Below, in pieces: positions 15,501 to 51,900 of a stretch of 64,000 nucleotides of DNA. The stretch comes from Tridacna crocea (Eukaryota; Mollusca; Bivalvia; Cardiida; Cardiidae), in contig OX031057.1 in NCBI GenBank assembly GCA_943736015.1, positions 56,874,001-56,938,000 on the forward strand. Reading direction: 5' to 3'. The notes below the pieces were generated by a model. It did not search any database. It was not told the DNA's origin and saw nothing but the letters and a program-made list of their open reading frames with translations. Numbering within the stretch: position 1 is the stretch's first letter; every line of letters begins with the position of its first letter. The position numbers were made by a program, and so were the translations under genes.

Positions 15501-18500
15501 TTTTAATAATAGCAAATTTTGTATGATAATATCATAATGGAAATAGCTGTTTTCTTTTACGAGTCCACTACTTTAGTCTAACTGCGGTGACCGAATTTGA
15601 GTAACCTAAATTGTCTAAATGCAACTGCATTTCATAACAAAATTTTACATATCGCGACCTTGGCATTTTGAAAATATCTAAATGCAAAATTGGATGTTTT
15701 TTTTAAAAAATGTAATACAGAAAAGTATGACCATGCTCTATGAAAAGAAAGTTCACTGCATCTTCCAAAGTACTGTCCCATTGTTAGCTTGCACAGACAT
15801 AGATCGATTCCTGTTTTGCTATTTGGCTTGCAAAACGCGAAAACGGGCTTTCGGATATCAGCATAAAGTATCGTGTCGGATCAGCATCCTCAGTCCGCAA
15901 AGGCTGATCCGAAACGGCATTTTATGACTACTCAAGAATTTATGCTACAGTAGACTTGTGCAAAACAGAAAATTACATAAAAAAAGGAAAGTATCCTTTT
16001 TGATTAGCCTGCATAGACTGATCGTGCTGATCCGAGAGGACATTTTATGTAAATGTCCAAATACCCTTTTTGCATGTTGCAGAGCATTTGTGTGATTCCT
16101 GAACTTTAACTCATTACCAAACGACAATATTTTAGGTTCGTCCAAATCGAAAGCATTTGCAGACGACAAAATAAAAGTGACTGAAAATTTGAAATTTGTT
16201 TTGTGAAGAGTAGAAAACATGGTGGGAAAAGGAGAAAATGCTGGTTACCAGCATTTTCTCATTTCCCCACAATGTTTTCTAAAGGCTTCTTCCTCAGGGT
16301 CGTCAAAAGTAGGGATTGTGTGGTAATGGGTTGAAGGAACTAATACATCAGTCGGCTGTTAGACGTGATGGATGTTATAGATCCCACATTATTTGATGAT
16401 ATGCATAGTATTATTGACAGATCGCTGCAAATTTTTATCAGACAACATCGTATCGAGGTTGAAAATGTAGAAACCACGTTAAGGTAAGACCTGTGTAATG
16501 GAAAACAGCTATTTCCACTAAAATATCATCCTGCAAAATTAGCTATAGTTAAAAATGAGCATTATTGAACTACTTTCACCTTTTCGTTTTTTCCATCTTT
16601 TTTCCTTCTTTGAATTATCATTTATAAATCTAAAACCACTATATTCTCAATTCAAAAAGATATAACAATTACCTCCCTTTTCAGAAAACAAAAAAAGTAT
16701 CAAAAAATAATTTCAAGATAGATATAAACGGAATTTCTGATCCGTTAAAAATGTGCAAAATTATTATTTCTGCATAAATCCTTACTTATCCTTATTCATC
16801 AACCAATTAGAAGTTTCACCGGAAGTGCATTACACAGGTCTTACCTTAAATCTATTTACCTTTCTTTTCAGTGTTTGATCCAAAATACGTATAAAAACAA
16901 TAGGAAATACATCTTTGTCGATAGGGAATCAAACTTTGATGAAATACATGTATTTATAGCCCGTTACCTACGATTAGCTATCTGCTGTCCGTTCTTGTCA
17001 CTTTAAAAGATGGAAGGACACAGTTTCTGTCAGCGATGACTAAACCTTGGACCTTAAAACTGAACCATTATGGATATAATTTGGAAGAATTAAGAAAGTC
17101 AAAGTAACGCAATTTCTGAGTAGTTGAACCAAATCGTAAAACAAATCAGAGATTATTTACTTTATCTTAATTTTAAAACGTAAATAAAAGAACGCAATTT
17201 CGAGTTGTTGGCGAAAAATACCTAGCAAATCCATAAACGTTAACCCTTCTTCTGCTAAATAAATAAATAGAATTTTCATTTCGGTAGTACAGATACAAAT
17301 ATTGCTTTTTCAAAGGCATGTTTTGGGACATAATGTCTCCTTAGCAGACAGTGTAGATCCAAAATGAGACTGCACAGAAAGATCGTGGTCTACATTGTTT
17401 GCAAAAGATCAGTGAGTCAAGCTTAGCAGCCTAAAGATTAACTCTTTAATACACGAGAAAATTTTAGACTGGTCCAAATTGAAAGCATTTGCAGACGACA
17501 AAATAAAGGTGACTGAAAAATTGAAATTTGTTCTGGGAAGGGTAGAAAACACTGTGGGAAAAAGAAAATATGCTGGTTACCAGCTTTTTCTCCTTTTCCC
17601 ACAGTGTTTTCAAAAGGCTTCTTTCTCAGGGGCATCAAAAGTAGGGATTGTGTGGTAATGAGTTAAGGTAATCCATCCATCGCTAGATAAAGTGGTTATT
17701 TAAGAAATAATCTTCTTTTTATCGTGGTATATCGTTCAATAAACCACAGTTGTGAGTTGTGAGGCACAATAAATAATCCACGAGGGCGATAGCCCGAGTG
17801 GGTTATTCATTGCGCCTCATAAATCACAACGGGGTTTATTGAACGATATACCACGATAGAAAGAAGATTATTTCGATTCTAACATGGTCAATTCCTAATG
17901 AAAGGAAAACAAGTGTCACGGAGAGGGGTTAGATATATAACCACTTGAAACCTGCCTTGCTGTTGAGCTAGCTTTTACAGCAATGCGGTTTGGTGTATTT
18001 CTCTCCGTGATAGTTAAGCAACGTGCATCAGGTTAGTGTCTGGATAGGTGACCAGGTCGTTGCACGTTACATTTGGTGGCAGAGGTGGGATAATGACAAC
18101 TGCCGTACTGGAGTTGCCTTACCCATGTATATTCCCCTGGTGCTTCTGTATATACATGCTTGTATATCTGTCTCGGGGGTCGAGACTTGTCAAAGGGGGG
18201 AGTAATGTCACGGAGAGGGGTTAGATATATAACCACTTGAAACCTGCCTTGCTGTCGAGCTAGCGATGCGGTTTGGTGTATTTCTCTCCGTGATAGTTAA
18301 GCAACGTGCATCAGGTTAGTGCCTGGATGGATGACCAGGTCGTTGCACGTTACACAAGTTCAAACTAAGAGTAAAAAGGCGCTGAAGATTATGTTCCATT
18401 GAATAACTCACTCATTGAATGACGTCACTCTACATGGATTGTCGCAGATTTTACCACGTTTTCCTTGCACTGTGTTTATAGAGCCAAAGTCGCGTGTCAT

Positions 18501-47953: not shown

Positions 47954-48925
47954 ATGCCTTCTCAAAGCATGACCATCTTGTACTCTTTACTTGTATGGTC
48001 GGTGATTGTCGTCGGCTACTGCGCTGATATTCGAGGAAATCAAAGTTTTTCTGTGATCAGAGTGGAAAAGTTAAGCGGTCTTTTCTACGTTGCGGAGGGT
48101 AACAAAATACGAGTGTTCGATTCCAGTCCTGCGGAAGTTAATAGACCGTATGAAGTTGGCCAAGATAATGTGAACAAATATGGCGAAAACTGCCATGATA
48201 AATTTCTAGACACATGCAAAGAACAGATGGATAATTTTATCACGTTGATGGAACTGGTTTACATAGACTTTGAATTACACATCTTTGTTTGTATGAGCCA
48301 GGACAACGGTACTTGTTACTTGATTGAGACAGCCCCGTGGTCGAAACGGAAGCTTTCGTTTAAAGAAACTGACATCAAGTTTCTAGTTTCGCACCATATT
48401 ACAACAACAAGCTTAAAATATGACCATGAGTACTCGAAAAATGATTCTTTTTATCTGTGTTTGGGAAGGGATATTGAGAGAAAAACGAATCACCGTCTAC
48501 GTCTGAGCATAGCCGTTCTCAAAATATCTTTGCTGAATGACACAATATCTTTAATATCCCAGGATACGTTCTTTGCTCGGTCTACATACAACACTAGGAT
48601 TGTGTACAGCTTTGTGAACAACTTTATGGCGTATTACGTATTAAATTACTTCACTAGCAATTTTGACAGATATGTTTTATTACAATTACAAATTTCAAAT
48701 GACGAAAAAGTCCGATACATTGAAACATCATTTAACTGTACAACTGATACAAACAGTGTAAAGAACGTCCATTTATATGACGACAAGCTTATTCTCCTAG
48801 CAGGGCAAAACCTATGTTTTACGACAATGATAGAAGTTGAAAAACATTTTGATACTACTGAAAAAGAATGTGCTGCAATATCGTGGATCAGACTTGCAAA
48901 ATACGATTTCTGCAAGGGAGAAAAG
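47954..48925 (+). CDS. Gene 2 exon 1 (signal peptide and most of Sema)
   Basis: 324 codons, ending in phase 0 at donor GTACGT. MTILYSLLVWSVIVVGYCAD is a signal peptide, with likely cleavage after YCA. The rest is a beta-rich Sema part with seven to nine cysteines and sequons NQS, NGT, NDS, NDT and NCT. There are two close Met codons (47954 and 47969); the first is chosen for its A at -3. No clear furin-type RxKR site is visible, unlike vertebrate MET. The frame reads on 10 codons into the intron before a stop. Confidence 0.93.
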
Positions 48926-51900
48926 GTACGTAGTTTGATTAATTCTACGATTTAAAGTCGCCACCGGTCACCCATATTCGCGATATTCCCAGATGGCGGT
49001 TGTTTATGTCTCATGGATGGTACAAGATAAAAGACGAAACTCATCCTAAGCTAGGCTTAGTTCTTTAATGAGCTATGTGTAAGCAGGGTCACAGGGGAAA
49101 TCTTATCCTAAAGATAATTGGTATTTTCAGTTGACCGGTCCTGGGTATCGAGTCACCATCATTAAGTGAGATAATAAATTTCGTGTTCTGCGACTTTGCT
49201 ACCTGGGCTGACTATGTTAGACGGTTATCATGCAGACTTCATGTCTTTGACAACACTGTTCTGTAATAAGCTACATATTGTTGGTTTACCTCGATAAGCT
49301 GTAGTTATGAGGTTTTCGAAGTAAACCGACGATATATAGGTAATGTTACTAGAACTTTATAAATATATATATATATGTATGTGTGTGTGTGGGGGGGGGG
49401 GGGGGGGGTGAAAGACACAGGGTAACGGCAACTGAGTGTACATGTAATGCCTTACCAAGGTATATATTATTAGTTGTACGGTCAGGTGGCAGGGGACTTG
49501 AAAACTTGTTCATGTCGCCCCGAGCCGAAGGAACAAGCCGTGTGCAGTCTGGTGGCAGGGGTCTTGGAAACTTGGATGTGGTGAATCATGCCCCCCGAGC
49601 CGACGGTGAGGTGGCGACAGCCGTGAACAAGTTTCCAAGTCCCCTGCCACCTGACTGTACAACGAATTTATTATACTGCAAAGTTTTACCCTTTCAAAGC
49701 GCGTTAAGAAAAATTTTCCTGTATTATAATCTCACAAATTGAGTATGCTTACGAAATAGAAATTCTCTTCTGAGTGCCCCAATTCAACGAAAACTGACGT
49801 CACTGGAAATTGACGTCACTAAAACGTGCGGTTTGGTGCATAATATATATCAGGTCACGAAAAATTTCTCTGCCGTATAATAAAACATGTTGCGCAGTCA
49901 TATACATGTAAGTGCATGTAATGGGCAGACGGGCAAGAAAACTTGATCTCTTTTTAATATACGATGGGTAAAAAACGTAACTATGGCCAAATTGGAATTG
50001 CCGATCTACAAAACAGGGAAGGTGGCAGATAGGACGAGGAAAAGAGGGTTTAAAGGTGGCCCTTCAGATTTTGGGACGAAAATTTCACAAAAATGCAAAA
50101 AAGTCACCCTTATACTAGCAAAGCATTTTAATTTTCATTCACAAAACCCCAGTAGTCGAAAACCACCCGACAACACGAGAAATTAGAGATTTACTACGAC
50201 ACAGGTTGACACCAACGGGAGACACATTCTATTTTTAGATGATCAATTCGCTCATCTACATACAGGAATACACAGACCAAGTTTCAAACATAGCGTTCGA
50301 AGAAGACATTATGGAAAATAATTATTACATTGTTTGTTATGTAATGGAATTTAAGCGTTATGAGTCACGTGCCAGTCACTTGACATTCCCACAATGCTTT
50401 ATTGATTTTTGGCGCGAAATCTAAAAATACATTAAGAGACTACGTAGCCTTTTAAGGGAACACCATCAAAAAAATTATTTTCGTAATTTTATGAATCTTA
50501 ATTATTGATTATTTGTATCATTTTTTCATGTGAATTTCAGTGATATATATATATATTTTCATTTGGTGAGATGTAACAATTCTAAATACCCACTTTTAAA
50601 CTCCCTTAAAAATAAAGCCGGTAGTTTATCGAAGACAGAGACAAGAGCTGAGGCACTTATATTTAGTCTCATTCGTGGATTTATCAGATTCTCGTTTAAT
50701 ACTGGAGACAGAAAAAATCATGTAGAATCTTTTATATCAAGTACACTTGGCTAATGAAATAAAGTTGATATAAAGTTGATAACGAGCAGGAGTATTATAA
50801 TTTTTCCCTTTTGTCAGACAGACAGACAGAAAGACAGACAGGTATGGATAAACGAACGCTTTTTAGCCCACTCAATGTGCATATAGCCTAAACTAATCAC
50901 AAACACTTTTTCACATGTTGTATAATGTTCTAAGTAAATTTTTAAAATATACTTTACATAAAAACTTAAGGAGGCGGTGTAATGCAGAAGTCATTCCTCT
51001 ACGTCGAGAAATGACCCATAGGTCACTTTGTAATGGGGTTCATTTCTGTGCATTACACCGGCATGAAAAATCAAAGTTGTTCACACAGTTGTGCAAATAC
51101 TGTTGCCCAATCTTCAGATGATCAAACCAGAAAAGAGTGCTAAAGAGAGCAGTAACTTTAGTTGGCATTAAGCCTCCGCTCCTCAATAGACGAAGTGATC
51201 CAAGTTCATAAAACTGACTGCTTTCCATCGAAAATTTCAACTCTTTGATACTCTTAATCTTGTAAATTCTGAGAAACATTGTTGGTAAACCAACAAATGC
51301 TTGCAACAAGCTTAAGTTCATTCCCCAACAATGTTCACAAAATTCTCAGAGTAACATGTGTTACCACAAATTGGACTAACTGTACGATTAATGGTGTCCA
51401 CCATCCTATAAGGACTAAATTCAAGATGCATTGTTTGAAAAGAAACAGATGCTCTCAATAAGCATCCATTTCCTTCTTCATAGTGCTCCTCTAACTTTTG
51501 AAATTGAATTTACTACTTTGATTATAGAGTAATATTTTGTAATGTATTTAGTGGGTCCCAGAATATATTGTACCCATTATTATGAATGTCTTTCACTAAT
51601 ATTACACCGTCGAAGGTCCATGCTGCGTTTACTTGTTTGTTTTTCATTAGAAGTCGGCACTGGCGAAATATGTCACTTCGTGTCCGTGTTAGGTCCTCGT
51701 TGATATAACAAGATCTTTAATTGTTCTGACAAAGCTTGGATTTCCTTTTGTAGATTTTGTCTTGGATCTGTAAGACGTGAACTTCACGATGATATCTCGA
51801 GGCTTTGAATTGCTATATGCAGATCCTCGCAGTGGTCCTACACGATGACTACGGTCAATCTCAGCCAACTGAATGTCGGCATCAATCGCTCTGGAAGCTT

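What the first reader, a model, noticed from the sequence alone, without database searches (positions are those of the whole stretch)
17914..18354. A Cassandra-like TRIM: 5S-rRNA sequence inside the LTRs of an animal miniature retrotransposon
Seen: two 149/158-bp direct repeats (TG...CA), CAAG target duplication, an initiator-Met-like PBS, a polypurine tract, a non-coding 134-bp interior, and in each LTR a segment matching both box A and box C of 5S rRNA at almost native spacing. Known: plant Cassandra TRIMs carry 5S sequences in their LTRs; animal SINE3 elements carry 5S heads but have no LTRs. I know of no described animal counterpart but cannot search. Inference: the LTRs could be transcribed by RNA polymerase III or bind TFIIIA, and the element is moved in trans by an LTR retrotransposon with the same PBS.
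Basis: partly seen in the sequence, partly recalled or inferred. Interest (0 to 1): 0.85.

Follow-up and report, generated by a model that had tools for sequence, protein, structure and literature searches.

The report
Mini-retrotransposon with borrowed 5S promoter
A tiny, gene-less jumping element in an invertebrate genome, probably a bivalve's, carries a copy of the switch of the 5S ribosomal RNA gene in both of its ends; a similar animal element was published in 2024 from ribbon worms, so this is a real new member of a young, rare class rather than a first.

Summary
Window 17914-18354 is a TRIM: LTRs of 158 and 149 bp, a 134-bp non-coding interior, primer-binding site, polypurine tract and CAAG duplication. 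Each LTR holds a 42-bp segment matching the host's 5S gene (34 of 43 columns for the 5' LTR; 0 of 2000 shuffles score as high). The genome has 433 places with the segment, reversed control 0; exact duplications, mostly 4 bp, flank 18 of 25 two-LTR copies scored. Corrections: the primer is tRNA-Leu(AAG), 18 of 18 bases, not initiator Met, and an animal counterpart is already published: Ajax, from two nemerteans (PMC10886601), also with a tRNA-Leu primer. New here: another host, probably a bivalve; 4-bp instead of 5-bp duplications; a candidate Gypsy partner sharing primer site, duplication length and 14 of 17 bases of the LTR 3' end; and an LTR layout (TATA, predicted start, sole T4 run) that would give a Pol III RNA with terminal repeats, as reported for Cassandra. 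Transcription is inferred, not shown. A new member of a known kind.

The parts
17910..17913 (.). target-site duplication, left copy (CAAG)
17914..18071 (+). 5' LTR, 158 bp, TGTCAC...GTTACA
17934..17940 (+). TATATAA, LTR positions 21-27; found in 35 of 41 LTRs of the first set and 39 of 42 of the second (the second set was chosen by a pattern that includes this motif)
   Evidence: function inferred
17963..17963 (+). predicted start of a Pol III RNA (LTR position 50), placed by the register of the 5S gene
   Evidence: inference
17973..17976 (+). TTTT, the only T4 run in LTR plus interior of this copy; possible Pol III terminator when read in a 3' LTR; this copy's own 3' LTR has lost it in the 9-bp deletion
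   Evidence: function inferred
18012..18053 (+). 5S-derived segment of the 5' LTR: box A 18012-18023, IE 18031-18037, box C 18041-18053
   Evidence: alignment to host 5S positions 50-92
18072..18205 (+). interior, 134 bp, non-coding
   Evidence: no ORF of 150 aa here
18074..18091 (+). primer-binding site, 18 of 18 bases complementary to the 3' end of host tRNA-Leu(AAG)
18192..18202 (+). polypurine tract AAAGGGGGGAG, followed by TAA and the 3' LTR
   Evidence: read directly
18206..18354 (+). 3' LTR, 149 bp
18295..18336 (+). 5S-derived segment of the 3' LTR
18355..18358 (.). target-site duplication, right copy (CAAG)

Best explanation
It is one copy of a multi-copy, non-autonomous TRIM of the Ajax / TRIMp3 kind. 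Shown: two LTRs, PBS, PPT and TSDs; a 5S promoter segment (box A, IE, box C) in each LTR; many full, solo and tandem copies. Inferred: the host's 5S transcription machinery (TFIIIA, TFIIIC, TFIIIB, Pol III) starts RNA about 50 bases upstream of box A (LTR position ~50), reads through the interior and stops at the T4 run of a 3' LTR (positions 60-63). That RNA would be about 306 nt with about 14 nt repeated at both ends, which could serve for strand transfer. tRNA-Leu primes reverse transcription, and enzymes of a Gypsy-type element with the same PBS and a similar LTR 3' end copy and insert it with 4-bp duplications. This copy itself has lost the T4 run of its 3' LTR. My estimates: TRIM with a 5S-derived LTR segment 0.97; Gypsy-type mobilisation 0.8; this particular Gypsy family or a close relative as partner 0.5; Pol III as the main polymerase 0.6.
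For: Structure and TSD: 11 of 16 complete two-LTR copies of the first set and 7 of 9 scored as full in a second, disjoint set have exact TSDs; solo LTRs 5 of 6 and 7 of 17 (7 of 11 after dropping six that abut a PPT or an interior). 27 of these 30 TSDs are 4 bp. Copies: 433 places with at most 3 mismatches to the 32-nt core, reversed control 0; 289 for the LTR start, control 0. 5S origin. With box limits taken from the Cassandra literature, the majority residues equal the host 5S in 12 of 12 of box A and 13 of 13 of box C, against 10 of 18 columns between them, where IE is 7 of 7 (82 LTRs; Fisher p 0.0003). The same holds in the 42 LTRs not chosen by the 5S segment (12 of 12, 13 of 13, 10 of 17 aligned). 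PBS. Layout: the only TATA-type site in LTR plus interior lies 23-29 bases upstream of the predicted start and the only T4 run 10-13 bases downstream; both together in 0.0001 of 20,000 shuffles (windows chosen after seeing them). The T4 run, which neither search pattern covers, is in 40 of 42 and 37 of 41 LTRs. No AATAAA or ATTAAA in this copy's LTR or interior; AATAAA in 0 of 83 sampled LTRs. Partner: two Gypsy-type copies (L061, L062) with 4-bp TSDs, PBS region identical over 20 of 20 bases in L062 and 19 of 20 in L061, protease, RT, RNase H and integrase matches (L061 pieces only), LTR 3' end 14 of 17; of 3992 ACA-ending 17-mers in the window and three loci only the Gypsy's own four LTR ends reach 13 or more.
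Against: No RNA data. Across copies chosen without regard to the 5S segment, that segment is no more conserved than the rest of the LTR (divergence from the majority 0.074 against 0.057 in positions 32-97), and 13 of 42 keep all three boxes by a strict motif test: most look decayed. The TATA box could mean Pol II. One base is missing between box A and IE relative to the host gene. A T4 run so close after the start could stop Pol III too early in the 5' LTR. A single T4 run in a sequence of this kind is common (878 of 2000 shuffles). The exact PPT followed by a non-TRIM LTR start has 0 matches in the genome, so the Gypsy candidate does not share the PPT. Another locus with the same PBS exists (L063), so PBS identity alone does not name the partner.
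Confidence: 0.7

Rival explanations
1. The TRIM is transcribed by Pol II from its TATA box; the 5S segment is a passenger, for example the remnant of a SINE3 insertion that spread with the element.
For: TATATAA is kept in 35 of 41 LTRs of the first set (39 of 42 in the second, but that set was chosen by a pattern containing it). The 5S segment is not better conserved than the rest among copies. Plant Cassandra-like TRIMs without 5S have TATA boxes (PMC10853983, passages seen).
Against: Box A, IE and box C of the family majority equal the host 5S while the linkers have drifted. No AATAAA or ATTAAA in LTR or interior of this copy.
Confidence: 0.25
2. Both polymerases can use the LTR: TATA and 5S boxes point at the same start, so the element may switch promoters by tissue or stage, or be caught in transition between a TATA TRIM and a 5S TRIM.
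For: TATA lies 23-29 bases upstream of the start predicted from the 5S register.
Against: No AATAAA in 83 sampled LTRs. TATA-like sites upstream of 5S genes also help Pol III in some organisms (recalled), so one polymerase may suffice.
Confidence: 0.15
3. It is a SINE3 (5S-headed, LINE-mobilised), and the LTR reading is an accident of tandem copies.
For: 5S segment; tandem arrays with ~291-bp period exist.
Against: TG...CA ends, PBS, PPT, 4-bp TSDs and solo LTRs with TSDs.
Confidence: 0.01
4. The 5S resemblance is chance.
For: Only 42 bp are involved and the 5S covariance model gives no match.
Against: 0 of 2000 shuffles, z 11.1 and 13.3 for the two LTRs; a divergent relative (L056) matches the host 5S better (score 48).
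Confidence: 0.01

Closest known systems
Ajax (nemertean 5S TRIM; Kojima 2024, PMC10886601; parts 1-4 of 6 and passages read)
   Same: Animal TRIM; LTR holds only the promoter part of 5S with box A, IE and box C; tRNA-Leu primer; 421 and 434 bp, against 441-451 bp in 14 of 16 complete copies here (the other two 421 and 454 bp).
   Different: Host; TSD mostly 4 bp here against 5 bp in Ajax. Sequence homology could not be tested: the Ajax consensus is in supplements and Repbase, which were not available.
Cassandra (plants; PMC7215508 and PMC10853983, passages seen; facts also from PMC10886601)
   Same: TRIM with 5S promoter in LTRs; tandem LTR-interior arrays; reported Pol III RNA with an 18-bp terminal repeat.
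   Different: Plant hosts; Cassandra has PBS TGGTATCAGAGC and is 565-860 bp; box A to box C gap 18 nt against 17 here. Kojima judges Ajax and Cassandra independent in origin.
Helenus (tRNA-promoter TRIMs, including bivalves; PMC10886601)
   Same: TRIMp3 design; animal families have 4-bp TSDs and Gypsy-like PBSs; found in Pteriomorphia bivalves.
   Different: tRNA-derived, not 5S-derived, LTR segment.
biv-TRIM (bivalves; PMC6934838, parts 1-2 of 5 read)
   Same: Bivalve TRIM, tandem arrays and solo repeats.
   Different: TDR 202-218 bp, interior 77-80 bp, PPT GGGGAGA in most, no unambiguous PBS; its conserved 14-nt inner segment is absent, as an exact string, from the whole window.
SINE3 (from PMC10886601 and recall)
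   Same: 5S-derived Pol III promoter.
   Different: No LTR, PBS or PPT; mobilised by non-LTR retrotransposons.

Membership tests
TRIM (terminal-repeat retrotransposon in miniature) | two LTRs TG...CA, total under 1000 bp, non-coding | tested here: met
TRIM (terminal-repeat retrotransposon in miniature) | PBS complementary to a tRNA 3' end next to the 5' LTR | tested here: met
   tRNA-Leu(AAG), 18 of 18 bases
TRIM (terminal-repeat retrotransposon in miniature) | polypurine tract next to the 3' LTR | tested here: met
   read directly; the same kind of flank precedes LTRs in L039 and in several loci
TRIM (terminal-repeat retrotransposon in miniature) | target-site duplication, multi-copy | tested here: met
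TRIMp3 (Pol III promoter TRIM) | small-RNA-gene promoter inside the LTR | tested here: met
TRIMp3 (Pol III promoter TRIM) | actual transcription by Pol III | not testable with these tools
   no RNA data
Ajax | box A, IE and box C of 5S in the LTR, rest of 5S absent | tested here: met
Ajax | tRNA-Leu primer | tested here: met
   against PMC10886601
Ajax | 5-bp TSD | tested here: not met
   4 bp in 14 of 16 exact duplications and 13 of 14; one of 5 bp, two of 6 bp
Ajax | sequence homology to Ajax-1_NGe or Ajax-1_LiLo | not testable with these tools
   supplement and Repbase not available
Cassandra | plant lineage with conserved PBS TGGTATCAGAGC | tested here: not met
   PBS here TGGTGGCAGAGGTGGGAT
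SINE3 | no LTRs, LINE-type mobilisation | tested here: not met
   LTRs present
biv-TRIM | TDR 202-218 bp, interior 77-80 bp, conserved inner segment | tested here: not met

The most novel reading that the evidence does not exclude
A third, separate capture of the 5S promoter by an LTR element (after Cassandra and Ajax), in a mollusc, with an LTR in which a TATA box and the 5S boxes point at the same start site and a single T4 run just after it sets the RNA's terminal repeat, moved by a resident Gypsy family whose LTR 3' end it shares. As far as the papers I read go, it would be the first 5S TRIM with a visible helper.
Probability: 0.35. Interest if true: 0.62.

Novelty: new member of a known kind. 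Interest (0 to 1): 0.42.

Why it matters
In the papers found, 5S-promoter TRIMs of animals rest on one paper and two related worms. A family in another, probably molluscan, genome suggests that the design recurs or is older than thought. Kojima writes that there is no indication of the autonomous element that moves Cassandra; here a candidate with matching PBS, TSD length and LTR end sits in the same genome, so how a Pol III RNA of this kind is replicated becomes testable. The layout also offers a simple rule for how such an RNA could get its terminal repeats.

Tried and rejected
Initiator-Met primer: rejected, tRNA-Leu fits 18 of 18. SINE3 and chance resemblance: rejected. A conserved LTR RNA structure: the window LTR folds better than all 200 shuffles (z -3.7). 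On 82 LTRs, 5 pairs have double changes (shuffles 4.3 on average, 200 of 500 as high; slid versions 6 to 12), while 11 cells have double changes (shuffles 5.6, 13 of 500 as high; slid versions 7 to 15) and the covariation score is 0.060 (shuffles 0.059, 59 of 500 as high; slid versions 0.016 to 0.034). The evidence is mixed and weak, so structure is not claimed. Stronger conservation of the 5S segment among copies: not found. An element with the identical PPT and a different LTR start: 0 exact matches. The TRIM core in viral contigs: 0 exact matches. The 333-aa window ORF: no Pfam family. L063 as partner: same PBS, but no LTR pair in the 10 kb taken. Literature: the listings show no title or abstract start about a molluscan 5S TRIM; one search listed 15 of 157 papers, the library is open-access only, and most listed papers were not opened.

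Full report
Observation. The 441-bp element at 17914-18354 has LTRs of 158 and 149 bp (5 mismatches in 149 aligned bases plus a 9-bp deletion in the 3' LTR), a 134-bp interior and a CAAG duplication on both sides. The 18 bases from 18074 are complementary to the 3' end, CCA included, of a host tRNA-Leu(AAG) gene on C1 (locus L048), 18 of 18; the other four tRNA-Leu genes compared fit 17 of 18.

5S match. Host 5S genes stand in arrays on C1 and C3 (47 of 19100 candidates were scored). Against one of them (L009), the 42-base segment of LTR5 has 13 identical bases through box A, 7 of 7 in IE and 12 of 13 in box C. Scores 39 (LTR5) and 44 (LTR3) compare with 15.8 on average and at most 28 in 2000 dinucleotide shuffles each, and with 26 for the best tile elsewhere in the window. 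A divergent relative, L056, scores 48. In 82 LTR copies the majority residues equal the host in all 12 box A and 13 box C positions but in 10 of 18 columns between them; about half of these copies came from a search by the 5S core, but the 42 that did not give the same picture. No 5S covariance-model match at E up to 10 (the one match listed, a bacterial sRNA model far below its gathering score, lies outside the element): the promoter part was kept, not the RNA.

Family. The 32-nt core occurs at 433 places with up to 3 mismatches, reversed control 0; a second core pattern, overlapping the first, at 229, control 0; the LTR start at 289, control 0. The DNA search scored 40 of 797 candidates and shows tandem units about 291 bp apart. 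First set (loci L001-L008 and L017-L046, duplicates dropped, 32 rows): of 16 complete two-LTR copies 11 have an exact TSD, four match in 3 of 4 bases and one lies in an array; of 6 complete single LTRs 5 have one and the sixth runs into an interior; 10 rows are partial. Second set (40 of the 289 LTR-start places, picked from the listed ones with at most 2 mismatches): 9 scored full (7 with TSD; of the two without, L070 is part of an array cut by the stretch), 17 scored solo (7 with TSD, 2 with 3 of 4 bases, 8 without; five of those eight follow a PPT-like flank and one precedes an interior), 14 partial or array without exact TSD. Copies of the second set differ from their majority at 5.8% of LTR positions.

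Mechanism. In the 5S register the start falls at LTR position 50. TATATAA lies at 21-27 and the only T4 run at 60-63; the run is present in 40 of 42 and 37 of 41 sampled LTRs, TATATAA in 39 of 42 (a set chosen by a pattern that includes it) and 35 of 41. An RNA from LTR 50 to LTR 63 of the 3' LTR would be about 306 nt with about 14 nt repeated, which resembles the 18-bp repeat that PMC10886601 reports for Cassandra. Of 19 interiors with both ends read, 1 has a T4 run. Shuffles place such a TATA site in 0.3%, a lone T4 run in that stretch in 3.9%, and both in 0.01% of 20,000 cases; the windows were chosen after the fact. This is a model, not a demonstration. Against it: the 5S segment is not more conserved among copies than its surroundings, and strict boxes survive together in 13 of 42 copies of the second set, against 31 of 41 in the first, which was largely chosen by the core.

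Partner. Two Gypsy-type copies (L061, L062) share the PBS region (19 and 20 of 20 bases), have 857-bp LTRs that are 100% and 99.9% identical within each copy, are flanked by 4-bp TSDs and end their LTRs with 14 of 17 bases in common with the TRIM; no unrelated 17-mer among 3992 reaches 13. Pieces of the L061 frame match aspartyl protease, RT, RNase H and integrase. Outside PBS and LTR end no similarity stood out, and the PPT differs. The TRIM's LTR is otherwise unlike the Gypsy's, which is what PMC10886601 expects for Pol III TRIMs. Another locus (L063) has the same PBS and long open frames (its domains were not searched), so the partner is a candidate only.

Host. The genome is 1.05 Gb in 31 contigs. 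Its 29-kb mitochondrial contig carries cox1, nad3, nad5, cox2, cox3, cob and nad1 on one strand; nad4L, nad6, nad2, nad4 and atp6 were named by eye (two of those frames match a proton-translocating NADH dehydrogenase family, two others that were searched match none). From recall, a large one-strand mitochondrial genome with this gene order suggests a bivalve; it is not proof, and no named relative could be compared.

Comparison. Ajax (PMC10886601) has the same idea, similar length and the same primer tRNA, but 5-bp TSDs and nemertean hosts. In the parts I read, its Ajax search covers two nemertean genomes. I therefore file this as an Ajax-like TRIMp3, a new member of a known kind, and not as Ajax itself, because the TSD differs and homology was not testable.

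Noticed in passing
17704-17874: A 42-bp inverted repeat (98% complementary, 87 bp apart) ends about 40 bp upstream of the TRIM; it may be a small palindromic DNA element.
   Followed up: no
window about 17548-17604: A palindrome, CACTGTGGGAAAA... / ...TTTTCCCACAGTG, read by eye.
   Followed up: no
L039; G000:C11:31479588-31480594; G000:C2:70234141-70234751: Tandem TRIM arrays with about 276-296-bp spacing, and in L039 an inverted TRIM fragment beside a full copy.
   Followed up: partly
L063 (G000:C1:64217000-64226999): A second locus with the same tRNA-Leu PBS and several long open frames; no LTR pair within the 10 kb.
   Followed up: no
L056 (G000:C4:55375610-55378633): A divergent relative of the TRIM whose 5S segment is closer to the host 5S gene (score 48 against 39 and 44), a possible older subfamily.
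   Followed up: partly
window 17914-18071: The LTR as RNA folds better than 200 shuffles (z -3.7) because its first 13 bases pair with bases just before the 5S part; covariation evidence on 82 LTRs is weak and mixed.
   Followed up: yes
window 47954-48955: The only ORF of 150 aa or more in the window (333 aa) matches no Pfam family.
   Followed up: partly
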